Shown piece by piece: positions 52 through 14,095 of a stretch of 14,375 nt of DNA. A program made the translations under genes and the position numbers. The notes under the pieces were generated by a model. That model saw only the letters and a program-made list of their open reading frames with translations, did no database searches and was not told the DNA's origin. Source of the DNA: Actinomycetota bacterium (GTDB lineage Bacteria; Actinomycetota; Thermoleophilia; UBA2241); assembly GCA_003132645.1 (NCBI GenBank), contig PKYM01000186.1, positions 1 to 14,375 of the forward strand, read 5' to 3'. The number at the start of each line of letters is the position of its first letter. The stretch's first letter is position 1.

Positions 52-948
52 TTACGACTGATCGGCGCGCTCATGAGAGGCCGGCTCGATGTGCACCAGC
101 ACTTCGCTGTGAGGCAGCCGCTGGCCGATGTCGCGCTCGATATGCTCGGCGATCCGGTGGGCGGCAGCCACCGTCATGTCGTCTGACACGGTGATGTGCA
201 AGTCGATCAGGTGTCTGGAGCCGGCGTGTCGCGAGCGCAGCTTGTGGTAGCCGATAATCAGCTCGCCGCGATGTTCGGCGACGGTCGCCCGCACGATGGC
301 GAGCTCGTCGTCGGGCAACGCTTCGTCTAACAGTACGCGCGTCGAGCGGCTGGCGATCCGCCAGGCCGTCCACATGATGAGACCGGCCACGGCGAGGGCC
401 AGCAGCGGATCGAAATACGTGCGACCGGTGACCTCGATCAGGGCGAGACCGGCGGCTACGCCCAGCGAGGTGTAGATGTCGGTCAGGTGGTTGGCGGCGT
501 CGGCTTCGAGCGCCGGCGATCCGACGCGATTCGCGACCCGATACAGGTAGATCGTGAGGCCGACGTTGACGGCCGCCGAGACGAGCATCACGGCGATGGC
601 GAGCGGCACGTGGTCGACCGTCTCGCCGGAGATCAGGTGACGGACGGCCTCGACGACGATCGCGATGCCGGCCGCGAAGACGATGGCCGCCTCGATGAAA
701 CCGGAGAAGTTCTCGACCTTGTCGTGCCCATAGCGATGGCGGAGATCGGCCGGCTGCGACGCCTTGCGCACGGACACGAGGGCGATGACGGCAGCCGCCA
801 GGTCGGTGCTCGAGTGCACCGCCTCGGAGATGATGCTGATCGAACCCGAGACCACGCCGACCGCCAGCTTGAAGGCGATGAGCGCCGTGTTCACTGCGAT
901 CGACACCCAGGCGGCGCGCGATTTCGCGGCGGCTGTCTCGCCGCTCAT
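52..948 (-). CDS. Cation diffusion facilitator (CDF) transporter, copy 1, with altered metal site
   Basis: A 298-aa CDF-family metal/proton antiporter expected to export divalent cations (Zn, Fe, Co or Mn) from the cytoplasm. It has the family layout: about six membrane helices (residues 14-200) and a cytoplasmic ZT-dimer domain (about 210-290). By eye it follows the E. coli YiiP numbering well. TM2 carries H45xxxD49, and D68, H71 and H75 sit where the loop site B lies. The C-terminal domain keeps its histidines and ends in a VHIEP motif. TM5 reads N153-H154-L-T-D157, so the usual metal-binding His of HxxxD is Asn. The ATG has a strong Shine-Dalgarno (GGAGGG, 957-962) 8 nt upstream. It lies 27 bp after the paralogue at 976-1890 and ends the operon. 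The family is certain; the substrate is not, and the His-to-Asn change may shift metal choice. Confidence 0.95.
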   Translation of the reverse strand: MSGETAAAKSRAAWVSIAVNTALIAFKLAVGVVSGSISIISEAVHSSTDLAAAVIALVSVRKASQPADLRHRYGHDKVENFSGFIEAAIVFAAGIAIVVEAVRHLISGETVDHVPLAIAVMLVSAAVNVGLTIYLYRVANRVGSPALEADAANHLTDIYTSLGVAAGLALIEVTGRTYFDPLLALAVAGLIMWTAWRIASRSTRVLLDEALPDDELAIVRATVAEHRGELIIGYHKLRSRHAGSRHLIDLHITVSDDMTVAAAHRIAEHIERDIGQRLPHSEVLVHIEPASHERADQS

Positions 949-975: not shown

Positions 976-1890
976 CTAGTCGCTTTCAGGATCGTGCGAA
1001 CGTGGTTCGACGTGCACCAGCGCCTCCGAATTGGGCAGCAGCTCGGCGATGTCGGCCATGATGTGCTCGGCGACGGCATGGGCCTCGGCGACGGTCATGT
1101 CGTCGGGCACGGTGATGTGCAGATCGATCAGGCGCTTGCTGCCCGCCTTGCGCGAGCGCAGGCGGTGAAAGCCGATGATCAGCTCGCCGCGATGCTCGGC
1201 CACCTTCTCGCCGATGAGCTCGAGCTCGTCGTCGGGGAGGGCCTCGTCAAGGAGCACCCGGGCCGAGCGACTGACCAGCCGCCAGCCGGTCCAGACGATG
1301 AGCATGGCGACGGCGATCGCCAGGATCGGGTCGAAGTACTCCCAGCCCGTGATACGCACGAGGACGAGGCCGGTTGCGATGCCGGCCGACGTGTAGACGT
1401 CGGTGAGGAGGTGGGCGGCGTCGGCTTCGAGCGCGGCCGAGTCGGTGCGCCTTGCTGCCGGCGAGAGGAACTTGCGGGAGACCAGCAGGTTGGCGCCCGC
1501 TGAGACCAGCATCACGCCGACGCCCAGTTCGATGTGTTCGATGTGCGGTCCGTGGACGATCTTCTGGGCCGCCTCGTAGACGATCACGATGGCCGCCACG
1601 ATAATCAGCAGGCCCTCGATCACCCCGGAGATGTTCTCGACCTTCTCGTGGCCGTAGCGATGCGAGGGGTCGGCCGGTTTGGCCGCCGCCCTCACCGACA
1701 CGAGGGCGATGATCGAGGCCACGAGGTCGGAGCCCGAGTGCAGCGCTTCGGAGATGATGCCGATCGAGCCCGAGATCACGCCGACGATGAGCTTGAAGAC
1801 GATGAGTGTGGCGTTCGAGGCGATCGAGATCCAGGCGGCGCGCGCCTTGAGGGCGTGGTTGTGGACGTCGCTCACCGCGGGCGCGTTCAC
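976..1890 (-). CDS. Cation diffusion facilitator (CDF) transporter, copy 2
   Basis: A 304-aa CDF metal efflux protein, clearly paralogous to its downstream neighbour, with closely matching sequence along its length. It has six predicted membrane helices and a C-terminal ZT-dimer domain. The transport site is complete as an HD-HD type: H51xxxD55 in TM2 and H160xxxD164 in TM5, a pattern linked to Zn transport in the family. The loop ligands D74, H77 and H81 are present, as is a C-terminal VHVEP motif. The open frame runs up to 2073, but those 61 extra codons lie inside rdgB and are Arg-rich, without CDF character. The chosen GTG at 1890 overlaps the rdgB stop as GTGA. No good Shine-Dalgarno precedes it, so translation is probably coupled to rdgB. 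A second GTG five codons on is also possible. Confidence 0.94.
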   Translation of the reverse strand: MNAPAVSDVHNHALKARAAWISIASNATLIVFKLIVGVISGSIGIISEALHSGSDLVASIIALVSVRAAAKPADPSHRYGHEKVENISGVIEGLLIIVAAIVIVYEAAQKIVHGPHIEHIELGVGVMLVSAGANLLVSRKFLSPAARRTDSAALEADAAHLLTDVYTSAGIATGLVLVRITGWEYFDPILAIAVAMLIVWTGWRLVSRSARVLLDEALPDDELELIGEKVAEHRGELIIGFHRLRSRKAGSKRLIDLHITVPDDMTVAEAHAVAEHIMADIAELLPNSEALVHVEPRSHDPESD

Positions 1891-2582
1891 GGCGGCGGAT
1901 CGTCGGCGAGGCGCGCGAGCAGCGCCCGCGCTGCTCGCGCGCGGTGGCTCTGGAGGTTCTTGTCGGCGTCGGTCATCTCGGCCACGGTCACCTGTAGCCC
2001 GGCCGGGACGAACAGCGGGTCGTAGCCGAATCCCGCGGCGCCGCGTGGCGCCGCCGCGATGACGCCGGGCCACTCGCCGCGCACCGCCTGCGAACCGGCC
2101 GCGCCGTCTACCACGAAGGCGATCACGCAGACGAAGCGAGCGGCGCGGTCGGGCTCGGCGCTCGAGTCGGCGGACTCGTCGCCTTGTCCGGGCTCGCCGG
2201 GGCGGTCGGAAAGCGCGGCGAGCCCGGCAAGCTCGGCGAGCAGCCGTTCGTTGTTGGCGGCGTCGTCACCCTCGCGACCGGCGTAGCGCGCCGAGGTCAC
2301 GCCGGGCGCGCCGCCCAGCGCCGCCACCTCGATGCCCGAGTCGTCGGCGATGACCACGAGGCGCTCCGCGGCGGCGCCGGCCGGCTCCGCCGCGGAGCGC
2401 CTCGAGCCGGCCAGCGCGCGAGCCAGGGCCTCAGCTTTTTCCCGGGCGTTGGCTTCGAACGAAGTGACCCCCTCGGGCGGCAGCTCGACGCCGGTGGGCA
2501 TCGGCTCGACCTCGTGGGAAGCGAGGATCGCGCGGTATTCGGCGAGCTTGTGGGCGTTGCGGCTGGCGAGCACGAAGCGCAT
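1887..2582 (-). CDS. rdgB: RdgB/HAM1 non-canonical purine NTP pyrophosphatase (XTP/dITP)
   Basis: A 231-aa enzyme that hydrolyses ITP, dITP and XTP to monophosphates plus pyrophosphate, keeping deaminated purines out of nucleic acids. Visible family motifs are SxNxxK at residues 7-12, FEANAREKA at 42-50, ADDSG at 79-83 (catalytic Asp pair), PGVTSARYAG, GFGYDPLF and the C-terminal AEM...DKN..SHRARA. It is longer than the usual 195-205 aa because of two Ala/Glu/Ser-rich linkers, one before ADDSG (about 60-75) and one mid-protein before the RFVCVIAFV strand. These look like disordered surface insertions. The start is the ATG whose A is also the last base of the rph stop (TGATG). A TTG one codon upstream, overlapping the stop as TTGA, cannot be excluded. 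The rph-rdgB pairing is common in bacteria. Confidence 0.96.
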   Translation of the reverse strand: MRFVLASRNAHKLAEYRAILASHEVEPMPTGVELPPEGVTSFEANAREKAEALARALAGSRRSAAEPAGAAAERLVVIADDSGIEVAALGGAPGVTSARYAGREGDDAANNERLLAELAGLAALSDRPGEPGQGDESADSSAEPDRAARFVCVIAFVVDGAAGSQAVRGEWPGVIAAAPRGAAGFGYDPLFVPAGLQVTVAEMTDADKNLQSHRARAARALLARLADDPPP

Positions 2583-3349
2583 CAACCCACCGGCCCGCCA
2601 CTCGGCGTGACCCCGGCGGCCGGCGAACCTTGGCCGCCGGCGGCGATGGTCGCCTGCTGCACAGCCACGATGCGCGCCACGCCGACGGCGGCGAGATCGA
2701 GGAGCGTGTCGAGGGTCGCCCGCGGGAAGGGCTCCCCTTCGGCGGTGGCCTGCACTTCGATGAGGTGGCCCTCGCCCGTCATCACGACGTTCATGTCGAG
2801 CGCCGCGGCCGAGTCTTCGTCATAGTCGAGGTCGAGCCGCGGCTCGCCGTCGACGATGCCCACCGAGACCGCGGCCACGTCTTCGAACAGCGGCAGCCGC
2901 GGCCAGCGAGCGCTGCCGCTCAGCTTCTCGAGGGCGATGACGAGCGCCACGTAGGCCCCCGAGATGGCAGCCGTACGCGTGCCGCCGTAGGCCTGCAGCA
3001 CGTCGCAGTCGATGTGCAGTGTGCGCTCACCGAGCGAGCCCAGGTCGACCACGGCCCGCAGGCTGCGCCCGATCAGCCGCTGGATCTCCTGCGTGCGGCC
3101 GCCCTGCTTGCCGCGCACCGCCTCGCGAGGCGTGCGGTCGGCGGTAGCGGCCGGCAGCATACTGTACTCGGCGGTCAGCCAACCGGAGCCGGTGCCGCGA
3201 CGCCAGCCGGGTACGCCGTCGACCACCTTGACCGTGCACAGCACGTGGGTGTCGCCGAGACGCACGATCACCGAGCCGTCAGCGAACTTCGCCACGTCGC
3301 GTTCCATGGACAGGGGTCGCAGCTCATCGGTTTCTCTGCCGAGTCTCAC
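2582..3349 (-). CDS. rph: Ribonuclease PH
   Basis: A 255-aa phosphorolytic 3'-to-5' exoribonuclease that trims tRNA 3' ends, normally as a hexamer. The N-terminus (VRLGRETDELRPLS) matches the family's usual start. Other motifs are GSVIVRLGDTHVLC, GKQGGRTQEIQRLIGRSLR (phosphate-site Arg near residue 85), HIDCDVLQA-Y-GGTRTAAISGA and EDSAAALDMNVVMTGEG. The residue just before GGTRT, usually Asp (ADGGTRT), is Tyr121 here. The frame extends to a GTG at 3358 that overlaps the queT stop as GTGA. I prefer the GTG at 3349: it has a near-perfect Shine-Dalgarno (GAGGTGA, 3355-3361) 5 nt upstream and fits the family N-terminus. Length is typical (about 240-260 aa). It sits between queT and rdgB in one operon. 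Confidence 0.95.
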   Translation of the reverse strand: MRLGRETDELRPLSMERDVAKFADGSVIVRLGDTHVLCTVKVVDGVPGWRRGTGSGWLTAEYSMLPAATADRTPREAVRGKQGGRTQEIQRLIGRSLRAVVDLGSLGERTLHIDCDVLQAYGGTRTAAISGAYVALVIALEKLSGSARWPRLPLFEDVAAVSVGIVDGEPRLDLDYDEDSAAALDMNVVMTGEGHLIEVQATAEGEPFPRATLDTLLDLAAVGVARIVAVQQATIAAGGQGSPAAGVTPSGGPVG

Positions 3350-3354
3350 GCAGG

Positions 3355-3361
3355 TCACCTC
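3355..3361 (-). promoter_or_regulatory. Strong Shine-Dalgarno that decides the rph start
   Basis: On the minus strand this reads GAGGTGA, ending 5 nt before the GTG at 3349. It overlaps the stop codon of queT. The match favours the downstream GTG over the GTG at 3358, which lies inside this motif. Confidence 0.6.
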
Positions 3362-3873
3362 TTCAGTCGGGATGATGTCCGCTCGGGGGGGCGCGGTCGT
3401 TCAGCCAGTCCGAAGACCGCGCCGTGCGAGCCGATCAGGTTCAGCACCAGCAATCCGCCGGTAAACAGCACGACCGCCTCGCCGAGCGCCACGAGGCCGA
3501 CGCTGGGCCAGAAGGGCAGATGGAGGACCAGCGCGAGCTCGGCGCCGACGCCCAGCCCGTTGACTACCACCGGCGCCGCCAAGGCTACCACGCGAGGCCC
3601 GATGCGCCACATCGCCAGGGCGGCGATCAGCGTGAGCAGCGAGCCGATCACGACGTCGGCCAGACCGATGGGGCTCGTCAGGCCGTTCGCGATCGCTGTG
3701 CCGAGGGTCAGCCCGACCACCGCCGCGGGATCGACGCAGGCGAATGGCAGCAGCGCCTCGGAGATACGGAACTGCACCTGACCCGACGCCAGTCCGAAGG
3801 CGCCGGCGAGCAGCGTCAGGACGACGTAGGCGGCCGCGTAGGAGCTACCGCGGGCGAGAAGGCGAGTGGTCAT
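3355..3873 (-). CDS. queT: QueT-family transporter (ECF S-component, queuosine precursor uptake)
   Basis: A 172-aa integral membrane protein of the QueT family, substrate-binding S-components of energy-coupling factor transporters linked to uptake of queuosine precursors. Diagnostic features are QFRISEAL at residues 34-41 followed by a PAAVVGLTLGTAIANGL segment, an I-G-S-L-L-T helix, VVNGLGVGAEL and a final GEAVVLF helix, about five to six membrane segments in all. The Arg/Pro-rich tail is cytoplasmic or disordered. It should need an EcfA/EcfA'/EcfT module, which is not in this window. The start overlaps the murI end by 29 bp, and the stop abuts rph. No preQ1 riboswitch is possible directly upstream, because that DNA is murI coding sequence. 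Family recognition is firm; the substrate is inferred. Confidence 0.88.
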   Translation of the reverse strand: MTTRLLARGSSYAAAYVVLTLLAGAFGLASGQVQFRISEALLPFACVDPAAVVGLTLGTAIANGLTSPIGLADVVIGSLLTLIAALAMWRIGPRVVALAAPVVVNGLGVGAELALVLHLPFWPSVGLVALGEAVVLFTGGLLVLNLIGSHGAVFGLAERPRPPERTSSRLKR

Positions 3874-5456: not shown

Positions 5457-6692
5457 CTACATGTTCTCTGCCATGTGCGTGGTCAGCTCGCCGAGTCGCT
5501 GGGTGTAGCTGCCCATCTCGTTGTCGTACCAGCCGAAGACCTTCACGTGCGTGAGCGGCACGCGCAAGGTTTGACGTGACGCCCCTCCCCCACCTGACTG
5601 CGCGGGGACCTGGAGGTCGATGAAGCCGGTGCGGGTGTGGGTCTCGACGCCTTCGATGACCACGGCGGCGTTCTCGCCGAGCATGTCCGCCGAGACGTTC
5701 TGCTCGTCGCTGAAGACGAGCAGGCCCTGGGCTTCGCCCTGCGCCGCATCCCGATAGATGGCATTGATGACCTCGCGCTCCACATCGATCGTGCCGTCGG
5801 GAAGAGTCTCGCTCTGGAAGGTCACGTTGAGGATGATGAGGCTCACGCTGGCCGTGGGTATGCGCACCGAATCGGCCATGAAGCCGATGCGCGCGATCTC
5901 GGGCATCACCTGCTCCAGCGCCGCGGCAGCGTTGGTCGAGGTGAGCACCACGTTGCTCAGGGCGCTGCGGGTCTTGCGCAGATCGGTGGCCCCCGCCCCC
6001 GGCACCGCGTCTAGCACGGGCTGTGAGTTGGTGGCCGCGTGCACCGTGCTCATGCCAGCGGTGATCATGTTGCGCGTGAGGTCGCGCTCGAGCAGCGGCC
6101 GCAGCATGTGGGCCAACGCCGTGGTCGTACACGACGCCGCCGAGACCAGCCTGTGCCTGGCAGGGTCGAACTGATAGTCGTTGATGCCGTGGATGAGGAT
6201 GGCCGCGTCGTCCGGCAACGGGGTGCCCTGCTGGCCGCTCTTGAACGGCGAGCTCTGCACCACGGCCCAGGCGCCGGCGGCCAGATGGCCGCGCAGCGCG
6301 CCCTTGGGTGAGTCGGCCTCGGCGTAGGGGTCACGGAAGCGGCCGGTGCACTCCACCACAAGCGACACGCCGGCGTCCTTCCAGGGGATGTCCTTGGGGT
6401 CGCGCGCCTCGCGCAGAATGACGATCTCCTTGCCGTAGGCGGAGATCAGGCCTCGCTGCTCGTCTACGACTTGCACGTCGCGCACACCCGCCTGCCCGTG
6501 TAGAAAGCGATGCAGCGGACCGTAGGTGCTGTCCTTGGCGATGTACTGCACGACCGCGTCCAGCGACGTCCCCACCGGCCGGCCCACGTTCACCACGATG
6601 CGCTCGAAGTCGTCGCGCCCCAGGTGATACCAGAGCACAAGCTTGCCGATGCGGCCGAGCCCGTTGATGCCGAGCGTTCGTTGCACACCCAT
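5457..6692 (-). CDS. Divergent GAPDH-like dehydrogenase
   Basis: A 411-aa protein with the two-domain fold of phosphorylating glyceraldehyde-3-phosphate dehydrogenase. The Rossmann start is GINGLGRIG (8-16), the catalytic Cys188 lies in SCTTT, the catalytic His218 in TVHAAT, and ATDLRKTRSALSN, RIPTASVS and WYDNEMGS are all recognisable. It departs from classic GapA in several ways. SCTTN is SCTTT; STGAA is STNAA; the post-beta-2 segment reads VNVGRP instead of a stretch with the usual NAD-selecting Asp. It is about 70 residues longer, with insertions including a Gly-rich SGGGGAS loop near the C-terminus. The frame is open to 7568, but the ATG at 6692 has AGGAGG (6703-6708) 10 nt upstream and begins at the Rossmann strand. 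It may not be the main glycolytic enzyme. It is divergent to the giant dikinase-like gene. Confidence 0.88.
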   Translation of the reverse strand: MGVQRTLGINGLGRIGKLVLWYHLGRDDFERIVVNVGRPVGTSLDAVVQYIAKDSTYGPLHRFLHGQAGVRDVQVVDEQRGLISAYGKEIVILREARDPKDIPWKDAGVSLVVECTGRFRDPYAEADSPKGALRGHLAAGAWAVVQSSPFKSGQQGTPLPDDAAILIHGINDYQFDPARHRLVSAASCTTTALAHMLRPLLERDLTRNMITAGMSTVHAATNSQPVLDAVPGAGATDLRKTRSALSNVVLTSTNAAAALEQVMPEIARIGFMADSVRIPTASVSLIILNVTFQSETLPDGTIDVEREVINAIYRDAAQGEAQGLLVFSDEQNVSADMLGENAAVVIEGVETHTRTGFIDLQVPAQSGGGGASRQTLRVPLTHVKVFGWYDNEMGSYTQRLGELTTHMAENM

Positions 6693-6801
6693 CGCCTGAT
6701 CGCCTCCTGTCGGCGGACGGCCCCCGGGGCCTCTTAAGTCTCGCGTCCGGCGGTGTCCGCGGCCGCCGGCCGGCTGGTCGCTTTCCGAGTCGAGCACCGC
6801 C

Positions 6802-6887: not shown

Positions 6888-9800
6888 ATGGACACGGTGC
6901 AAGTACCCTTCGATTCCGACGCCCTGCGGGCCAATATCGCCACCACCGCCCAGACGGTCGTGATCCCCGATCGCTATCTGCCGCTGGTCTCCGCGGTCGC
7001 GGAGTTCTACGGCGTGCGTTCTTCCCTCACCGAGACGGTCGGCGAATACTTCCACACCTTCCGCAACGTCGACTTGCTGATCGAAGGCTTCCAGATCATC
7101 CTGCTGCGCAACTGGAGCTACTTCGAGCGCTCCGACGAGCGCGCCACGCTGTTCGGGCTGCTCGCCGAACTGGTGCTCGAGCTGCTCCACGCCCAGTTGA
7201 GCGACGCCCAGTTCTCGCTGCTGCTGCGCGGGCTGCTGACCTGGTCCACGGCGGTCCTGAACGGGCCCAACGGCGCCGTCTACGACGAGTCGCTGAAGAC
7301 GATCGGCGAGGCCCTGACCCGTTTGCTGCCGGGGAAGTGCTCGGCGTTCCTCGAGCGCGACGCGCTGGTGCGCGGCCTGGTCTCCCGGGCGAGCCGCCGG
7401 GCCGCCCTGGCGCCGGTCTACACCGAGCTCTACCGCGCCCTGCTTCTGACGGGCTACCGCCGCGTAGACGAGCGCCTCGACGTACCCGGCTGGGCCCTGG
7501 CCCAGGGCGCCGGGCTCACCGACCCGGCGGCCATTGCCAGGCGCTTCACCTTTCTCGCCAAACGGCACCTGGCCGGTTTGCTCGCCGGTGCCCAGACCGC
7601 CACCGGCGAGCAGTTGCTGCTACCCGACCTTCCCGTGTTCTCCGACATCCTCGGGCGGGCGATCGACCAGCTCTTCCACGTGCAGAACCTCGAGGACCGC
7701 TTCGCCGTGTGTCTCTTCTTTCTCAGGGACGACACGCTCGGCTATCGCCAGGACGAGGTCGTGGTCGACCTGCTGGGTGTCGTCAAGCAGATGATGCGCC
7801 CCGACAGACACATGGATGTCGACACCATCCTGAGCCGCCTCACGTCGTTCTTCCGCGATCGCGACAATCAGTTCCTGCTGATGCGCTTCAAGTGCTACGA
7901 AGCCATCGGGGTAGCGATCGGCGAGGCCTGCAACGTCGAGGCGGCCGACCATTTCCTCGAGGACATCCTCTCGTGGCGCTTCCAGTACCCGGAGATCCGC
8001 GGGTCCACTGACGAGTGGGAGACGGTGGTCAATCCCTACCACCTGCCCAAGATCCGCTGCTGGATGCACATCATCGAGTCCAACCCCGCCCTCTACGAGC
8101 GCCTCGCGGCGGCGCTCAACGTCCAGCTTCGGCTGGGCGGCGTGTACATCGCCGACACCGACCTCTTTCAGCGCGACGTCACCCGCTTCCTGAACGCCGA
8201 CATCCGGCCCATCTACTTCGTCGCCAAGCAGCTCCTGCGCACCCTGCCCGTATATTTCAGCGAGGTCGGCGCCGAGGGCGAGTTTCGCGCCGTCTCCACC
8301 GAGGTCGACGAGATGTGCTGGCGCGGCGACGCCCTTATGCACTTCCTGCGCAAGCAGTCGCACGCGGAGTCGTCGAACCGGCTGGTGGCGTTCAGTCGCG
8401 CCGTGCTGCACTACTGGATGACCCTCGACACCTCGCTCCTTTCGCCCTTCCTGTCGGCCAACACGCTGGCGGCGGTGCGCGTCGAGCTGGAGTGGGCCCA
8501 GGGTCCGCACGAGACGCTCCTGGCGCTGCAGAAGCAGTGCGCCACCCGGCAGGCTCCCGGGACGGTCGAGCCGGTCCCGCCCGCGGCCCGCGCTGAAGCC
8601 TTCGTCGAGATGCTGCTGACGCTGGCTCCGGCCGTGCTCGAGGCGCAGCTCGCCACCGTCGCGCCAGACCAGGCGTCGCGCGAGAACGACGGCGAGGGTC
8701 AAGGTGCGGGCAACGTCGACGACCGGCGCCGCGTGGCGCTCATGGTGCGGATCTATCGACTGCTGGCCCAGAAGTACTCCTTGTCGGCCGACGACGTGGG
8801 CGTCGCCGTCAGTAAGCACCTGCGGCTCGCCGACAAGGTGCGGCGCCGGTTCGAACGCGCGCTGCACGCCTGGCAGACAGGCCCCAGCCCGGCGCGCCGC
8901 GATCGCCTGCTCGACGCCGGCCTCAGTGTGCTCGAGGAGCTGAAGACCATCGTCCTCTCCCCCACGGCGTCGGCCGCCACCGAGAACCTCTACCAGAAGC
9001 GCCACATCGCAGCGGGCATCCCCTCGATCTACGGCAACTACAGCGAGCCCAAGTTCGACGCTTTGGGCCTGTCGTTTCGGGTCGAGAACCTGGTGGGCCG
9101 GCTGCTCGACGACCTGGTCGCCGAGGGCATCGAGCCTTTTGTGACGCGCGGCTCCCTGCGTCGCATGTTCACGATCATCGAGCGCTTCGAACAGGCGCTG
9201 GCCGTCGATGGCGTCGACTCCCGGGCCCTGGCCGCCAACCTGAGCATGCTGAAGGGGAGCTTCGCCAGCCGCACCTTCACGTTCCGCCAGTATCAGAACG
9301 TCTTCCAGTTTCTCGTCACCAGCGTCACCGGACTCTCGGCGAGCTCGATCCTGAGTCACGACCAGGTGCTGCACACCGTGCTCATCAATGACCCGCGCCA
9401 GTGCGAGGCGCGCTCGCTGTCGGTCGACGCGGTGGCCGAGATGGTGCTGCGCGAAGTGCTGGTCTCGGCGCTGGGCATGCAGGCCGTCGATCGCTACGTG
9501 GCGGCCGCCCTGCGCCAGATCTCGACCCTGAACAAACGTCTCGGCAGCCAGGCCCTCAGCCGCATGATGAACTACGACGAGGACCGCCTGATCTCGCCCA
9601 TCCACAAGCCCCAGCCCGGCACCGACGACCAGACCACGCTGGGCTTCAAGGGCCTCGGACTCAAGCAGATGGCGTCGTACGGGCACCGGGTGCCCGAGGG
9701 CTTCATCCTCACCACCGAACTGGCCGGCGCCCTGCCGGCGATGTCCTACCGGCCCCTCTACGACGACACCATCAGGCGCATCGGGAGTGCCGTGGGCCAG

Positions 9801-11126
9801 CTCGAAAAGCTGACGGGCCTGCGCCTGGGCGACCCGGCGCACGCCCTGCTGCTGTCGGTGCGCTCGGGAGCGGCGATCTCCATGCCCGGCCTGATGACCA
9901 CCTTCGTCAACGTGGGCCTGAACGACGAGCTGGCCGACGCGCTGTCGGCGGAGCCACGCCTCGGCTGGGCGGCCTGGGACTGCTACCGACGCTTTCTGCA
10001 GTCGTGGGCCATGTCGGCCGGCATCGATCGCGACTTCTTCGACGCCATCATGACCGAGTTCAAGAGCCGCTACGGGGTCGAGCAGAAGCTCGACTTCACC
10101 CCCGGGCAGATGCGCGAGATCGCCTTCACCTACAAGGCCCGGGCGAAGGAGACGGGCGTGGTGTTCGTCGACGACCCCTTCGAGCAGATCGTGGCCTGCG
10201 TGCAGAAGGTGCTCGAGTCGTGGGACTCGCCCCACGCGCGCATCTACCGCCGGCAGCTCGGCATCGCCGAGGAGTGGGGCACCGCCGTCGTGGTGCAGCG
10301 CATGGTCTTCGGCAACCTGAGCCGCGAGTCGGGCTCGGGTGTGACCTTCACGCACAACCCGCTCGAGCCCTACAGCCGGCAGGCGCGCCTGTTCGGCGAC
10401 TACGCCGTGCGCAGCCAGGGCGAGGACCTGGTCGGCGGCCTCGTGTTCCCCCTGCCGGTCTCCGAAGCCCAGCGGCTCGGCAGCCTCACCTACCGCGGCA
10501 CCGAGCACTCGCTCGAGCGCGACTACCCAGAGGTCTACCGGGAGCTGCTTTCAGTCGCCCGCGAGCTGGTCGGCGAGCGCGAGTTCGATCCCCAGGAGAT
10601 CGAGTTCACCTTCGAGTCGCCGGCCGCCGAAGACCTCTACGTGCTGCAGAAGCGAGCCGTGGTCCAGGAGCAGTCCAAAGACTCGGCCTACTTCGACACC
10701 TCCTCCCCCGACTACGGACCCCCGGTGGCGGTGGGCATGGGCGTGGCGGGCGGCGCCTACGCCGGACGCGTGGCGGTCAACGCCGAGCAGATCGACAAGT
10801 TACTGGCCGAGGCGCCGGCAGAGAACGTCGTGCTCCTGCGGCCCGACACGGTGCCCGAAGACATCGCCATCATCACGCGGGTGAACGCCATCCTGACGGC
10901 CCGCGGCGGGGCCACCTCGCACGCCGCGGTCACCGCCAAACGCCTGGGCAAGACCGCCGTGGTCGATTGCCGCGAGCTCGAGGTGATCGAACGCCAGGGT
11001 TCGGCGCGCCTGGCCGGCTACGAGCTGCACTTCGGCGACTGGCTGTCGGTCGACGGGCGCACGGGCAACATCTTCCTGGGCCGCATCCCCACCCTGACCG
11101 AGCCGGCGCTGGCCGAGCTCGACTGA
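6888..11126 (+). CDS. Giant dikinase-like protein: unknown 900-aa N-terminus, PPDK-type ATP-grasp and phosphohistidine domains
   Basis: A 1412-aa, probably cytoplasmic protein. Residues 1 to about 900 look mainly helical, match no family I know, and contain a Gly/Asp/Glu-rich linker near 590-612. From about 915 it follows pyruvate phosphate dikinase. G919-F-K921-G and the MASYGHRVPEGF motif form the ATP-binding start. SVRSGAAISMPGLM (Arg992), EEWGTAVVVQRMVFGN, GSGVTFTHNP, SQGEDLVGG and EIEFTFE...LYVLQKRA complete the ATP-grasp domain. A swivel domain (about 1285-1410) carries ARGGATSHAAV with phospho-acceptor His1345 and the adjacent Thr-Ser that PPDK regulatory proteins target in true PPDK. 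The protein ends there, so the roughly 350-aa PEP/pyruvate TIM barrel is missing. It should therefore phosphorylate its His from ATP and pass phosphate to an unknown acceptor, perhaps bound by the N-terminus. It is divergent to the GAPDH-like gene. Confidence 0.9.
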   Translation: MDTVQVPFDSDALRANIATTAQTVVIPDRYLPLVSAVAEFYGVRSSLTETVGEYFHTFRNVDLLIEGFQIILLRNWSYFERSDERATLFGLLAELVLELLHAQLSDAQFSLLLRGLLTWSTAVLNGPNGAVYDESLKTIGEALTRLLPGKCSAFLERDALVRGLVSRASRRAALAPVYTELYRALLLTGYRRVDERLDVPGWALAQGAGLTDPAAIARRFTFLAKRHLAGLLAGAQTATGEQLLLPDLPVFSDILGRAIDQLFHVQNLEDRFAVCLFFLRDDTLGYRQDEVVVDLLGVVKQMMRPDRHMDVDTILSRLTSFFRDRDNQFLLMRFKCYEAIGVAIGEACNVEAADHFLEDILSWRFQYPEIRGSTDEWETVVNPYHLPKIRCWMHIIESNPALYERLAAALNVQLRLGGVYIADTDLFQRDVTRFLNADIRPIYFVAKQLLRTLPVYFSEVGAEGEFRAVSTEVDEMCWRGDALMHFLRKQSHAESSNRLVAFSRAVLHYWMTLDTSLLSPFLSANTLAAVRVELEWAQGPHETLLALQKQCATRQAPGTVEPVPPAARAEAFVEMLLTLAPAVLEAQLATVAPDQASRENDGEGQGAGNVDDRRRVALMVRIYRLLAQKYSLSADDVGVAVSKHLRLADKVRRRFERALHAWQTGPSPARRDRLLDAGLSVLEELKTIVLSPTASAATENLYQKRHIAAGIPSIYGNYSEPKFDALGLSFRVENLVGRLLDDLVAEGIEPFVTRGSLRRMFTIIERFEQALAVDGVDSRALAANLSMLKGSFASRTFTFRQYQNVFQFLVTSVTGLSASSILSHDQVLHTVLINDPRQCEARSLSVDAVAEMVLREVLVSALGMQAVDRYVAAALRQISTLNKRLGSQALSRMMNYDEDRLISPIHKPQPGTDDQTTLGFKGLGLKQMASYGHRVPEGFILTTELAGALPAMSYRPLYDDTIRRIGSAVGQLEKLTGLRLGDPAHALLLSVRSGAAISMPGLMTTFVNVGLNDELADALSAEPRLGWAAWDCYRRFLQSWAMSAGIDRDFFDAIMTEFKSRYGVEQKLDFTPGQMREIAFTYKARAKETGVVFVDDPFEQIVACVQKVLESWDSPHARIYRRQLGIAEEWGTAVVVQRMVFGNLSRESGSGVTFTHNPLEPYSRQARLFGDYAVRSQGEDLVGGLVFPLPVSEAQRLGSLTYRGTEHSLERDYPEVYRELLSVARELVGEREFDPQEIEFTFESPAAEDLYVLQKRAVVQEQSKDSAYFDTSSPDYGPPVAVGMGVAGGAYAGRVAVNAEQIDKLLAEAPAENVVLLRPDTVPEDIAIITRVNAILTARGGATSHAAVTAKRLGKTAVVDCRELEVIERQGSARLAGYELHFGDWLSVDGRTGNIFLGRIPTLTEPALAELD

Positions 11127-11131
11127 AAGGT

Positions 11132-12040
11132 CTAGCCCGGCGCCACCGGCCCCGCCCGATTGGCCAGGAACACGCCGGCGACAACGACGACCGCCGCCAG
11201 AGCCTGTCCCGCCGTGAAGCGCTCGCCCAGCACGACGAACGCCGCCCCGACGGCGATCACGGGGACGATGTTGGTGAACGCCGAGGCCCTGCCGGCGGTC
11301 ACGAACCGCAGGCCGTAGTTGAGCAGCAGATAGGCGACGATCGAGCCCAGCAACGCGAGGTAGAGGACCGCGGAGACGGCGGCGGCCGTGGGCGTCCTCA
11401 CACCGACGACGGCCACCTCGAGCGCCGCCAGGGGCGCCATGAACAGCGCCCCGAACAGGGTCTGGAAGGTCGTCACGAACAGCGCCGAGCGCGTCACCAG
11501 CAGCCGGCGCGCCATGACCGTGTAGACGGCGCCCGCCAGCGAGGCCGCCAGCACGAGCAGATCGCCGCCCAGCGTCGTGTCCCCCGCTCCCCGCGCGCCG
11601 AACTCGACCAGCGCCATCACGCCGGCGAACGACAGCGCGACGCCCAGCCACTGGCCGGCCGCGGTGTGCTCGCGCACGGTCACCGCGTTCAAGACGAGCA
11701 CGAAGATCGGGATGGTGGCGATCAGGATGGCCGCGCTGCTCGCGCTCGTGTGCGCGATGCCCACGTTCTCGAAGGTGAAGTAGACGGTGAGTGAGACGAA
11801 GCCCAGCAGCGCCAGACGGCCGAGCTCGCGGCGGGACACCGGCTCGCGCTCGCCGCGCCGGCGCCAGGCCAGCCACAGGATCGCGCCGGCGACCGTGAAG
11901 CGCAGGAGGGCGATGAGGAGGGGCTCGAAGCCGCGCAGCGCCACCTTGGTGGCCACGAACGTCCCGCCGAAGGCGACCGTCATGGCCACCAGGGCGACGT
12001 AGGCTTTGACCGGAGGGTGTGGTGCGGGCGGGCCGTTCAC
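11132..12040 (-). CDS. EamA/DMT-superfamily transporter
   Basis: A 302-aa inner-membrane protein of the drug/metabolite transporter superfamily with ten predicted helices arranged as two EamA repeats (about residues 12-145 and 157-295). Typical features are the first-helix AFGGTFVATKVAL segment, the LRF motif after helix 2, the short R/K-rich loop (WRRRGER), the E-H-x-x-x-G-x-x-x-G pattern that starts the last helix of repeat 1, and its counterpart GERFTAGQALA in repeat 2. The substrate cannot be read from sequence; relatives export amino acids, purines or other metabolites. The GTG at 12040 is the furthest-upstream plausible start; no strong ribosome site precedes it. Its stop is 5 bp from the stop of the dikinase-like gene, tail to tail. 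Confidence 0.9.
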   Translation of the reverse strand: MNGPPAPHPPVKAYVALVAMTVAFGGTFVATKVALRGFEPLLIALLRFTVAGAILWLAWRRRGEREPVSRRELGRLALLGFVSLTVYFTFENVGIAHTSASSAAILIATIPIFVLVLNAVTVREHTAAGQWLGVALSFAGVMALVEFGARGAGDTTLGGDLLVLAASLAGAVYTVMARRLLVTRSALFVTTFQTLFGALFMAPLAALEVAVVGVRTPTAAAVSAVLYLALLGSIVAYLLLNYGLRFVTAGRASAFTNIVPVIAVGAAFVVLGERFTAGQALAAVVVVAGVFLANRAGPVAPG

Positions 12041-12322
12041 GCCCGGACTCTACCGCAGGCGCGCCCGGCAGACGAGCAAGCGCCGCTTGCGAGCTCGGCA
12101 GGGCCGGCCCCCTGACGCGGCGCACTCGAAGACTGCATGCCGCCCGTGCACTTCAGGCGAGAGGCCGGCTCCGCAAACGTCCGATGGGGCCGGGACCGTC
12201 TGCGCTCGACGAGGATGCGGAAGCGTTCTTCGCTCGTCCGCGCCTCCGCTTCGACCTGCCTTGCTGCGCGGCCGAGACGCTGGTGGGCGTTGGTCGGCGC
12301 AAACCCAGAAAGGACGCCCTCG
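12041..12322. other. Intergenic region between the EamA and LCP genes
   Basis: 282 bp without a convincing intact gene. It contains a 6-bp stem hairpin with a 3-nt loop at 12076-12090 (GCAAGC/GCTTGC), without a T-tract, just upstream of the EamA gene. It also holds a short minus-strand stretch that reads like the start of a PAS domain (12205-12285). No clear promoter hexamers were found for the EamA gene. Confidence 0.5.
12205..12285 (-). pseudogene. Possible remnant of a PAS-domain sensor protein
   Basis: The minus strand encodes HQRLGRAARQ followed by VEAEARTSEERFRILVE, 27 residues in one frame. The pattern EAEAR.SEERFR.LVE is the familiar helical lead-in to PAS domains in histidine kinases and diguanylate cyclases. 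After the final Glu the frame turns into Arg/Pro/Ser-rich sequence unlike PAS, and no start codon or kinase domain is attached. It immediately follows the LCP stop on the same strand. I read it as a decayed fragment; chance resemblance in a GC-rich frame is possible. Confidence 0.3.
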
Positions 12323-14095
12323 TCAGTGCACGGCCACACACGACGTGGCCAGGGCCAGCATGAGCGGGTTCGACAGCTCCTCGTCCAGAGTGTTTGAGAC
12401 CCAGTAGGCCGTCCCACCAACTCTCCAGGCGACCATGCGCAGCTTCGCGCCGTCGTAGTAGAGAGAGTAGCTGTGGGCGCCGATGGCCTTGATCGTGTCG
12501 GGGCTGGCAAGAATCGGTGGGTTCGTCCAGCGGAGAGCCTGCACGTCCCAGTAGCCCCCCTGCGGCGTGGTGCCCACAACGACGGCCGCGGGCACGGTGC
12601 CGTGGCCGGTCTTGCACCTGTAGGCGCGAAACTGGTCGTAACCGAGGCCCGGCGACCAGGCGGTCGGCATGGCGAGCGCGATGGGTGTCTGGTGCCGCAA
12701 CGCCTGCCACTGCGCCGCGTCGTGTGGAGCGTTGCTGACCACGGCTTGTGGACTCTGGCCACTCGCCGACGCCGCCGGCACGACAAGCTGCCCCGAGTAA
12801 GATGAGCCCACGGTCACGATGACGTGGCCGGTCGCAACGCTCTGGCCTGCAGCCACCTTGAGCTGAGCGGGTGCGAGCAGGCCGGCAAGGCCCCGGGCGA
12901 CGGAAACGCCGGCGGAGCTCGCCGAGACCGTCGTGGTCGCGTAGCCGAAGTTCGCAGCATTGCCACCGACCGCGACCACGTAACCTCTGGTCTGCAGCTG
13001 AGCGGCGACGGCCGCGGCAGCGCCCGCCCGGCCGGAGCCGTTCAGGACCGTGATCTTCACCTGGCTGCGGGGCAGTTGAGACACGCTCGCCTTCGACTGC
13101 CCCCGCAGCTGGGGGCTCACCGGGCTCAAGAACTCCTGGACTCCGGCCGCAATGTCCTGTGGCGTTGCGACAACGTAGGAGACACCGCCGATAGTGGGCG
13201 TCGTCCCCGTGATGTGGGCCTGGTAGATATGGTTGGTGTCGAGCTTCAGGCCGAGGGTGACCAGACCGTAGATCTTGCTCAGGCTGGCGATGTCGGAGAC
13301 GGCGTAGTGCGACATGATCGTGGCCACCGAGAAAAGATGCGGAAAGCTCGTGATCGTGGCCGAGCCCGCCAGCTCGCGCTTCATCTCGCGCAGGAACATC
13401 TGCTGCCGCACGATGCGCGTGAAGTCGCCGTTCTGGTCGTGGCGGAAGCGCACAAAGGAGAGCGCCTGGTGGCCGTTCAGAACCTGGTAGCCAGGCTGGA
13501 TGTCGATCGAAGCGTAGTTTGTCACGGCGGTGTTGTTGTAGTAGCGATGATCGACCATGAGGTAGGCCCCACCCAGCTTGTCGACGACCTTGATGAAGCC
13601 TTCGAAGTTGACGTCGATGAAGTCGTTGATGGGAACGCCGAGCAGCTGCTTGACCGTCTCGACGGTCAGCTTGGCGCCGCCCAGGGAGTAGGCCGCGTTG
13701 ATCTTGTTCAGGCCGAAGCCGGGGATGTCGACCCGCAGGTCGCGCGGCACGGAGAGCATCGAGATGCTGTTGGTCTGAGGATCGAGACGCACGACCACGA
13801 GCGTGTCCGAGCGGGCCCCGACGTCGGCTTGGTGCACACGCCGGTCGCTGCCGATGATCAGGATGTTGACCGGCCCAGACGGCAGCACCGGGCTGAGCTG
13901 CTGCTTGGCGGCCTTGACCTCGGCGGGGTCGTTGTGGGCGACCTGGGCGGCAGTGTGCTGGAGCCAGAGCCCCAGAGCACCGACCGCAGCGACGACAAGA
14001 CAGACCGCAACGAGACCAATCCATTTGAGGACTCGCAACCGCGGGTGCCGGTGCCTGGCCGACCCTGATGATGCGTACCGCGTGTAGTCAGCCAC
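12323..14095 (-). CDS. LytR-CpsA-Psr (LCP) family protein with LytR_C and an extra C-terminal domain
   Basis: A 590-aa membrane-anchored enzyme of the family that transfers polyprenyl-pyrophosphate-linked glycopolymers to peptidoglycan. It has a short basic cytoplasmic tail, one membrane helix (about 24-45) and an extracellular remainder. The LCP domain spans about 73-242 with NILIIGSDRR (78-86), ARSDT (95-99, catalytic-site Arg/Asp), SVPRDLRV (115-122), LNKINAAYSLGG (129-140) and the Arg-rich FVRFRHDQNGDFTRIVRQQ (214-232). A LytR_C domain covers about 345-432 (VKITVLNGSGRAG). A third domain (about 460-590) contains YWDVQALRW, YSLYYDGAKLRMV and YWVSNTLDEELSNPLML, similar to tails I associate with Thermoleophilia LCP proteins. 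The GTG at 14095 is the best start, with only a weak ribosome site. It lies 138 bp after a PBP gene on the same strand. Confidence 0.93.
   Translation of the reverse strand: MADYTRYASSGSARHRHPRLRVLKWIGLVAVCLVVAAVGALGLWLQHTAAQVAHNDPAEVKAAKQQLSPVLPSGPVNILIIGSDRRVHQADVGARSDTLVVVRLDPQTNSISMLSVPRDLRVDIPGFGLNKINAAYSLGGAKLTVETVKQLLGVPINDFIDVNFEGFIKVVDKLGGAYLMVDHRYYNNTAVTNYASIDIQPGYQVLNGHQALSFVRFRHDQNGDFTRIVRQQMFLREMKRELAGSATITSFPHLFSVATIMSHYAVSDIASLSKIYGLVTLGLKLDTNHIYQAHITGTTPTIGGVSYVVATPQDIAAGVQEFLSPVSPQLRGQSKASVSQLPRSQVKITVLNGSGRAGAAAAVAAQLQTRGYVVAVGGNAANFGYATTTVSASSAGVSVARGLAGLLAPAQLKVAAGQSVATGHVIVTVGSSYSGQLVVPAASASGQSPQAVVSNAPHDAAQWQALRHQTPIALAMPTAWSPGLGYDQFRAYRCKTGHGTVPAAVVVGTTPQGGYWDVQALRWTNPPILASPDTIKAIGAHSYSLYYDGAKLRMVAWRVGGTAYWVSNTLDEELSNPLMLALATSCVAVH

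What the first reader, a model, noticed from the sequence alone, without database searches (positions are those of the whole stretch)
9640..11126. PPDK-type ATP-grasp plus phosphohistidine domain with no PEP/pyruvate barrel
The C-terminal third has the PPDK ATP-binding motifs (GFKG, SVRSGA, GVTFTHNP) and the swivel motif GGATSHAAV with His1345, then ends at residue 1412. In PPDK and PEP synthase the swivel His passes phosphate to pyruvate held by a TIM barrel, which is absent. Barrel-less members of this superfamily, such as rifampin phosphotransferase, and the differently ordered glucan water dikinase phosphorylate other acceptors. So this protein probably phosphorylates an unknown substrate.
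Basis: partly seen in the sequence, partly recalled or inferred. Interest (0 to 1): 0.8.

Follow-up and report, generated by a model that had tools for sequence, protein, structure and literature searches.

The report
Orphan dikinase partnered with a GAPDH
A large, widespread bacterial phosphate-transfer enzyme, usually mislabelled as an enzyme of pyruvate metabolism, lacks the pyruvate site and instead travels with a special form of the sugar-breakdown enzyme GAPDH, which points to an undescribed step in central carbon metabolism.

Summary
Window 6888-11126 (+) encodes 1412 residues with PPDK-type ATP-grasp and swivel domains (His1345) and no PEP/pyruvate barrel. Most PPDK catalytic positions are invariant in 75 aligned sequences, one as D321E. 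Residues 1-905 match no Pfam family and are predicted all-alpha apart from a hairpin. The assembly has its own PPDK and a PTS enzyme I but no barrel-only protein, so this is not a split PEP synthase.

The new result is the partner: a divergent GAPDH variant of about 412 residues (gapX) that has lost Asp32, so NADP(H) use is predicted. Of 61 loci with enough flank, the window's included, 48 have a gapX, an ordinary gapA or both next door. Dikinase and gapX co-occur: same 5 of 296 genomes; 50 shared of 51 and 52 in 198; same 1 of 247. PGK is retained in 50 of 51.

Best guess for the acceptor, unproven: 3-phosphoglycerate, giving 1,3-bisphosphoglycerate for gapX at the cost of ATP to AMP. Coupling to GAPDH is well supported; the acceptor is inferred. 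Five Bacteroidota/Chlorobiota-titled genomes carry the dikinase without gapX, near a NAD-type gapA.

The parts
6888..11126 (+). Whole 1412-aa barrel-less dikinase; 70 of 70 complete homologous ORFs end within 33 residues after their match to it
6888..8231 (+). Residues 1-448: alpha-helical, solenoid-like N-terminal region, no family match
8100..9602 (+). Residues about 405-905: conserved helical core with invariant D423 D425 Q428 E463 R467 T471 D474 R479 D481 R488 K489 H492 E494; proposed acceptor-binding region
   Evidence: 75-sequence alignments
8979..9044 (+). Residues 698-719: beta-hairpin whose low-confidence tip carries invariant K704 R705 H706 ... S713 Y715
9642..10661 (+). Residues 919-1258: PPDK-type ATP-grasp domain with conserved nucleotide-site residues
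10821..11066 (+). Residues 1312-1393: swivelling phosphohistidine domain, His1345 (codon 10920-10922)
5457..6698 (-). gapX: GAPDH variant of about 413 aa, divergent from the dikinase (start codon not settled); Asp32 replaced (N-V-G-R), catalytic Cys/His kept in the family

Best explanation
A GAPDH-coupled small-molecule dikinase. Shown by sequence or model: PPDK-type ATP-grasp and swivel domains with intact catalytic positions; no barrel; a conserved 900-residue, almost wholly helical region carrying many invariant charged residues; genomic coupling to GAPDH, above all gapX. Inferred: His1345 takes the beta-phosphate of ATP (AMP plus PPi or Pi released), swings to the helical core and hands it to an anionic acceptor there. 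Most likely acceptor: the carboxylate of 3-phosphoglycerate, giving 1,3-bisphosphoglycerate, which gapX reduces with NADPH to glyceraldehyde-3-phosphate. It would be an energy-committed gluconeogenic parallel to reversible PGK, as PEP synthase is to pyruvate kinase. Split confidence: GAPDH-coupled catalytic dikinase about 0.85; 3-PG/1,3-BPG as acceptor/product about 0.4.
For: Catalytic residues kept in 75 aligned sequences. GAPDH within 600 bp in 48 of 61 loci with enough flank, of both kinds in 12. Co-occurrence with gapX: same 5 of 296; 50 both, 1 dikinase only, 2 gapX only, 145 neither in 198 (recounted in 112), Fisher p 2.6e-43 without correction for relatedness; same 1 of 247, the centre genome. 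The link survives loss of adjacency: in G362, G543, G436, G400, G465, G519, G493 and G503 gapX lies beside PGK, away from the dikinase; in three of these eight (G543, G493, G503) a gapA sits next to the dikinase, in five no GAPDH was found in the fetched stretch. Operons gapA-dikinase-gapX-pgk (L078) and dikinase-gapX-gapA-pgk-tpi (L104). gapX keeps the Cys, His, Arg231 and Thr179 equivalents and lacks Asp32 in 38 of 38; Asp32 substitutions allow NADP use and Bacillus GapB (NADP) serves gluconeogenesis (PMC9145139, passages). gapX is the only GAPDH-I match in G340, whose locus lies on the 3.65-Mb chromosome record CP070843. T. dismutans, with the four-gene operon, cannot ferment sugars and is said probably to run gluconeogenesis, with a separate PEP synthase (PMC4911364, passages). 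Eleven invariant basic residues in 213-905 suit an anionic substrate.
Against: No direct evidence for 3-PG. PGK is retained (50 of 51 dikinase genomes; 35 of 40) and often sits beside gapX, so a second route to 1,3-BPG looks redundant. Five genomes (G323, G326, G328, G346, G348) have the dikinase without gapX and with a NAD-type gapA near it. Adjacency is not constant: eight rumen/Spirochaetales/UBP6-titled loci have no GAPDH nearby, though the four of their genomes searched hold a gapX-type match elsewhere, and five of eight further loci have none in the fetched stretch. No known member of the superfamily is recalled to phosphorylate a carboxylate. A solenoid-like N-terminus could mean a protein substrate.
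Confidence: 0.4

Rival explanations
1. Dikinase for another small substrate linked to triose phosphates (glyceraldehyde, dihydroxyacetone, glycerate, or a nicotinamide cofactor of gapX), feeding or serving GAPDH.
For: Same genomic link to GAPDH, PGK and TPI; PGK kept, so 1,3-BPG synthesis need not be the gap; known barrel-less relatives phosphorylate phenols and rifampin (PMC12167813, PMC4844700, passages).
Against: Why the dikinase should track gapX rather than all GAPDHs is then unclear; many invariant Arg/Lys/His residues suit a charged acceptor.
Confidence: 0.25
2. Protein-modifying or regulatory dikinase: the helical N-terminus docks gapX/gapA and His1345 phosphorylates it, or the pair forms an allosterically controlled complex.
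For: Solenoid-like N-terminal fold; tracks gapX far more tightly than PGK, the only pathway enzyme compared; precedent recalled: PPDK regulatory protein.
Against: Invariant charged positions spread over 377-896 are more typical of a small-molecule site; also occurs near ordinary gapA without gapX.
Confidence: 0.2
3. Alternative PEP synthase/PPDK in which the helical region binds pyruvate instead of the barrel.
For: Nucleotide half closest to PPDK; named PEP synthase or pyruvate,orthophosphate dikinase by several sources.
Against: No barrel; own genome has a PPDK; T. dismutans has a separate PEP synthase; would not explain the gapX link.
Confidence: 0.07
4. Degenerate or split PPDK without activity.
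For: Barrel lost.
Against: Catalytic positions kept in 75 sequences of several phyla; no barrel-only protein found in the assembly.
Confidence: 0.02

Closest known systems
Pyruvate phosphate dikinase (C. symbiosum 1kbl/9pzl)
   Same: ATP-grasp and swivel domains in the same order, catalytic residues kept, 3.3 A over 541 alignment columns
   Different: No PEP/pyruvate barrel; about 900-residue helical N-terminal region; D321 is Glu; partner GAPDH
Rifampin phosphotransferase (RPH)
   Same: Barrel-less dikinase with its own acceptor region and a C-terminal His swivel (PMC4844700, passages)
   Different: RPH order is ATP-grasp, acceptor domain, swivel; here the unassigned region is N-terminal of ATP-grasp. 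NCBIfam RPH 29 bits against a cut-off of 999
Two-component phenolic dikinases HpeHI / CreHI / PpsAB
   Same: Barrel-less dikinases dedicated to a small molecule (PMC12167813, passages)
   Different: Two polypeptides, phenolic substrates; Foldseek match to HpeI only weak (6.1e-4)
Glucan, water dikinase (recalled)
   Same: Barrel-less, other acceptor
   Different: Recalled order is carbohydrate-binding, His, ATP-grasp; here ATP-grasp precedes His
Bacillus GapA/GapB pair
   Same: Second, NADP-type GAPDH for gluconeogenesis (PMC9145139, passages)
   Different: No dikinase partner known to me (recall); gapX carries extra segments and is about 33% identical to the gapA set on average

Membership tests
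Pyruvate phosphate dikinase | ATP-grasp and phosphohistidine domains with catalytic residues | tested here: met
   (D321 to Glu)
Pyruvate phosphate dikinase | PEP/pyruvate-binding barrel (PF02896) | tested here: not met
Pyruvate phosphate dikinase | NCBIfam TIGR01828 cut-off (843 bits) | tested here: not met
   342 bits
PEP synthase | NCBIfam TIGR01418 cut-off (740 bits) | tested here: not met
   61 bits
Rifampin phosphotransferase | Order ATP-grasp, acceptor domain, swivel; NF041857 cut-off 999 | tested here: not met
   order; 29 bits
Rifampin phosphotransferase | Fold of the rifampin-binding domain | tested here: inconclusive
   No such match among the rows shown for the N-terminal model; not an exclusion
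HpeHI-type two-component dikinases | ATP-grasp on a separate polypeptide | tested here: not met
   one ORF; 70 complete single-ORF homologues
Glucan water dikinase | His domain before ATP-grasp, carbohydrate-binding N-terminus (recalled) | tested here: not met
   ATP-grasp 973-1188 before swivel 1312-1393; no other Pfam
Type I GAPDH (gapX partner) | Catalytic Cys/His and Arg231 | tested here: met
   38 of 38
Type I GAPDH (gapX partner) | TIGR01534 cut-off 367 bits | tested here: not met
   342.6 bits (L078) and 285.6 bits (window)
PGK replacement | Absence of PGK where the dikinase is present | tested here: not met
   PGK in 50 of 51 dikinase genomes
3-phosphoglycerate dikinase (proposed) | 3-PG-dependent AMP formation | not testable with these tools
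   needs biochemistry

The most novel reading that the evidence does not exclude
A widespread third energy-committing bypass of gluconeogenesis: an ATP to AMP 3-phosphoglycerate dikinase paired with an NADP(H)-type GAPDH, running beside the reversible PGK/GAPDH pair in bacteria of many phyla. It would be the first dikinase of this superfamily to make an acyl phosphate (from recall).
Probability: 0.35. Interest if true: 0.9.

Novelty: new variant of a known kind. Interest (0 to 1): 0.73.

Why it matters
The protein is common (519 matching stretches, from two patterns, encode a relative in one scan of species genomes; 51 of 198 genomes in one phylum sample) and is named PEP synthase or PPDK by several sources, which would mislead metabolic models. 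Near-perfect co-occurrence with a special GAPDH gives a concrete, cheap route to its function. If it acts on 3-PG/1,3-BPG, textbook lower glycolysis gains a new enzyme; if it modifies GAPDH, a new control mechanism of central metabolism is exposed.

Tried and rejected

Rows dropped: L018 and L021 left out of A1; 50 of 70 complete ORFs and 24 of the 240 listed proteins used in A2/A3; GAPDH translations with stops or covering fewer than about 300 query residues dropped; loci with short flanks (22 of 83) left out of the adjacency count.
Full report
What is there. The window's + strand ORF 6888-11126 encodes 1412 residues. Pfam recognises only PPDK_N and PEP-utilizers in the C-terminal third. Against sequences of solved structures the best match is C. 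symbiosum PPDK over residues 915-1403. NCBIfam places the nucleotide half nearest to PPDK (342 bits; cut-off 843) and far from PEP synthase (61-66 bits) and rifampin phosphotransferase (29 bits). In 75 aligned sequences (the window's and 74 homologues) the equivalents of PPDK K22, R92, R135, D280, E323, Q335, R337 and H455 are invariant, E279 is 69/75, T453 73/75, and D321 is replaced by Glu in all (residue roles recalled, mapping from the alignment).

Not a split enzyme. The assembly (88% complete) encodes a PPDK with barrel on contig C138, read there in two frames, and a PTS EIIA-HPr-EI protein on C39; no other match to the barrel model was found. Residues 1-905 have no Pfam match and are predicted alpha-helical apart from a hairpin, at good confidence (mean pLDDT 88-89). 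The C-terminal half aligns with PPDK 1kbl at 3.3 A over 541 alignment columns, the state in which the swivel lies near the nucleotide domain (PMC5371819, passages).

A real, widespread family. A scan of GTDB species genomes with an alignment of the N-terminal region found 519 stretches (from two patterns, so fewer genes) that encode a relative; 80 loci were kept, with titles from Actinomycetota/Thermoleophilia, Planctomycetota, Bacteroidota, Chlorobiota/Ignavibacteria, Cloacimonadota, Desulfobacterales and other Deltaproteobacteria, Acidobacteria, Spirochaetales and others. Seventy complete ORFs between 1300 and 1600 aa were counted; in 70 of 70 the match to the window's protein reaches residue 1396 or beyond and ends within 33 residues of the ORF's end, so none has room for a barrel after the swivel. 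Thirty-nine polar or aromatic positions of residues 213-905 are identical in at least 72 of 75 sequences; eleven basic ones are invariant (R467, R479, R488, K489, H492, K629, K704, R705, H706, R731, R855). K704-R705-H706 sit at the poorly predicted, probably mobile tip of a beta-hairpin (698-719). This looks like a conserved active site rather than a mere linker, but no pocket could be inspected.

The partner. In one search by far the commonest neighbour cluster (60 of 83 loci; the next had 9) was a GAPDH. Two kinds occur: gapA-like proteins of about 335 aa and gapX, about 412 aa, 33% identical on average. The window's own gapX lies divergently at 5457-6698. Of 83 loci examined, the window's included, 61 have at least 1.3 kb upstream and 1.6 kb downstream; 48 of these have a GAPDH within 600 bp (20 gapX, 16 gapA, 12 both), 5 more have one within 4.4 kb, and 8 have none nearby. 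The eight carry rumen-bacterium, Spirochaetales or UBP6 titles; the five of them in the tree form one clade (support 1.0). The loci are related, so 48 of 61 is not 48 independent events; the tree shows several deep lineages.

Co-occurrence. In 296 genomes of the window's phylum the N-terminal region occurs in 5 and gapX (E <= 1e-60) in the same 5. In 198 genomes of the phylum of G337 the dikinase (E <= 1e-20) occurs in 51 and gapX (E <= 1e-70) in 52; 50 have both, one has only the dikinase (G461, on a 3.5-kb contig), two only gapX (G353, cut at a contig end; G426, which also lacks a PGK match) and 145 neither. In 247 genomes of the phylum of G335 each occurs once, in the centre genome itself. 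In the second sample eight genomes noted by hand have gapX beside PGK and away from the dikinase (G362, G543, G436, G400, G465, G519, G493, G503), so the correlation is not just linkage; beside those dikinases a gapA was found in three and no GAPDH in five. Exceptions: of 40 dikinase genomes searched with the GAPDH model, by my count of match spans 33 hold a full gapX-type match and one (G330) a truncated one; five Bacteroidota/Chlorobiota-titled genomes (G323, G326, G328, G346, G348) hold none but have a NAD-type gapA near the dikinase; one (G329) has only a short fragment. Eight sequences of that gapA-only kind form one clade (support 1.0).

What gapX is. The catalytic Cys and His and the Thr179 and Arg231 equivalents are kept in 38 of 38, and the Asp32 position reads N-x-G-R in place of N-D in 38 of 38. 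Asp32 contacts the NAD 2'-hydroxyl and its substitution allows NADP use; the NADP-type GapB of Bacillus serves gluconeogenesis (PMC3728087 and PMC9145139, passages). In G340, the genome of L114 on the 3.65-Mb chromosome record CP070843, gapX is the only GAPDH-I match while PGK is present, which argues that gapX acts on G3P/1,3-BPG.

Direction and pathway. Operons gapA-dikinase-gapX-pgk (T. dismutans, L078) and dikinase-gapX-gapA-pgk-tpi (L104) place the enzyme in triose-phosphate metabolism. The T. dismutans genome paper lists TDIS_2021 (PGK) and TDIS_2022, TDIS_2024 and TDIS_2143 (GAPDH), states that the organism cannot ferment sugars and probably runs the pathway as gluconeogenesis, and names a separate PEP synthase; TDIS_2023 does not occur in its main text (PMC4911364, passages and term counts; that TDIS_2023 is the dikinase follows from gene order in L078).

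Mechanism proposed. ATP loads His1345 (inferred from conserved residues), the swivel carries the phosphate to the helical core, and an anionic acceptor is phosphorylated. I commit to 3-phosphoglycerate, making 1,3-bisphosphoglycerate for gapX. Textbook free energies (recalled: ATP to AMP+PPi about -46 kJ/mol, ATP to ADP+Pi about -31; 1,3-BPG hydrolysis about -49) make this step roughly 15 kJ/mol easier than through PGK, more if PPi is removed. The main objection is that PGK is retained in 50 of 51 such genomes and 35 of 40. Rivals are a different triose-level acceptor and phosphorylation of GAPDH itself.

Known or new. I saw no description of this family in the listings of nine answered paper searches, within a library that lacks most subscription papers and all preprints. 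Sources that name it call it PEP synthase, pyruvate,orthophosphate dikinase, PEP-utilizing enzyme, phosphohistidine swiveling domain or PEP/pyruvate-binding domain protein. The RPH paper says that its relatives are often misannotated as PEPS and PPDK and form a large unexplored group (PMC4844700, passages). I rate this a new variant of a known kind: the kinase chemistry is known; the N-terminal region, its GAPDH partner and the likely pathway step are not.

Noticed in passing
window 2582-3358, 1887-2585, 3355-3873 (-): RNase PH, Ham1/RdgB-type and QueT-type transporter genes in a row
   Followed up: no
window 52-948 and 976-2073 (-): Two adjacent cation-diffusion-facilitator exporters
   Followed up: no
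window 11132-12040 (-): EamA-type transporter convergent with the dikinase gene
   Followed up: no
window 12153-14068: Long overlapping frames on both strands (623 aa on -, 414 aa on +) without any Pfam match; the coding strand is undecided
   Followed up: no
L181:2933-7100 (G413): The dikinase lies in two overlapping frames on a 1.76-Mb contig; gapX follows in one frame. Could be a true split, a frameshift or an assembly error
   Followed up: partly
L101:8249-9232: The GAPDH beside this dikinase is strongly diverged: 197 bits to the GAPDH model and no Asp32 motif
   Followed up: no
L179 / G449: Two gapX-pgk pairs with identical scores in one genome, one of them beside the dikinase
   Followed up: no
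L076, L080, L087, L102, L123 upstream of the dikinase: A distinct gapA' subgroup (N-D-K-M; T-N-N-Q instead of T-N-D-Q) flanks the dikinase opposite gapX, hinting at heteromeric GAPDHs
   Followed up: no
G323, G326, G328, G346, G348: These genomes also hold a GAPDH-type match in an open frame of about 490-510 aa; its place relative to the dikinase was not studied
   Followed up: no
L066 and L069: Two dikinase loci carry the title of one assembly (Thermoleophilia UBA6103), so one genome may hold two copies
   Followed up: no
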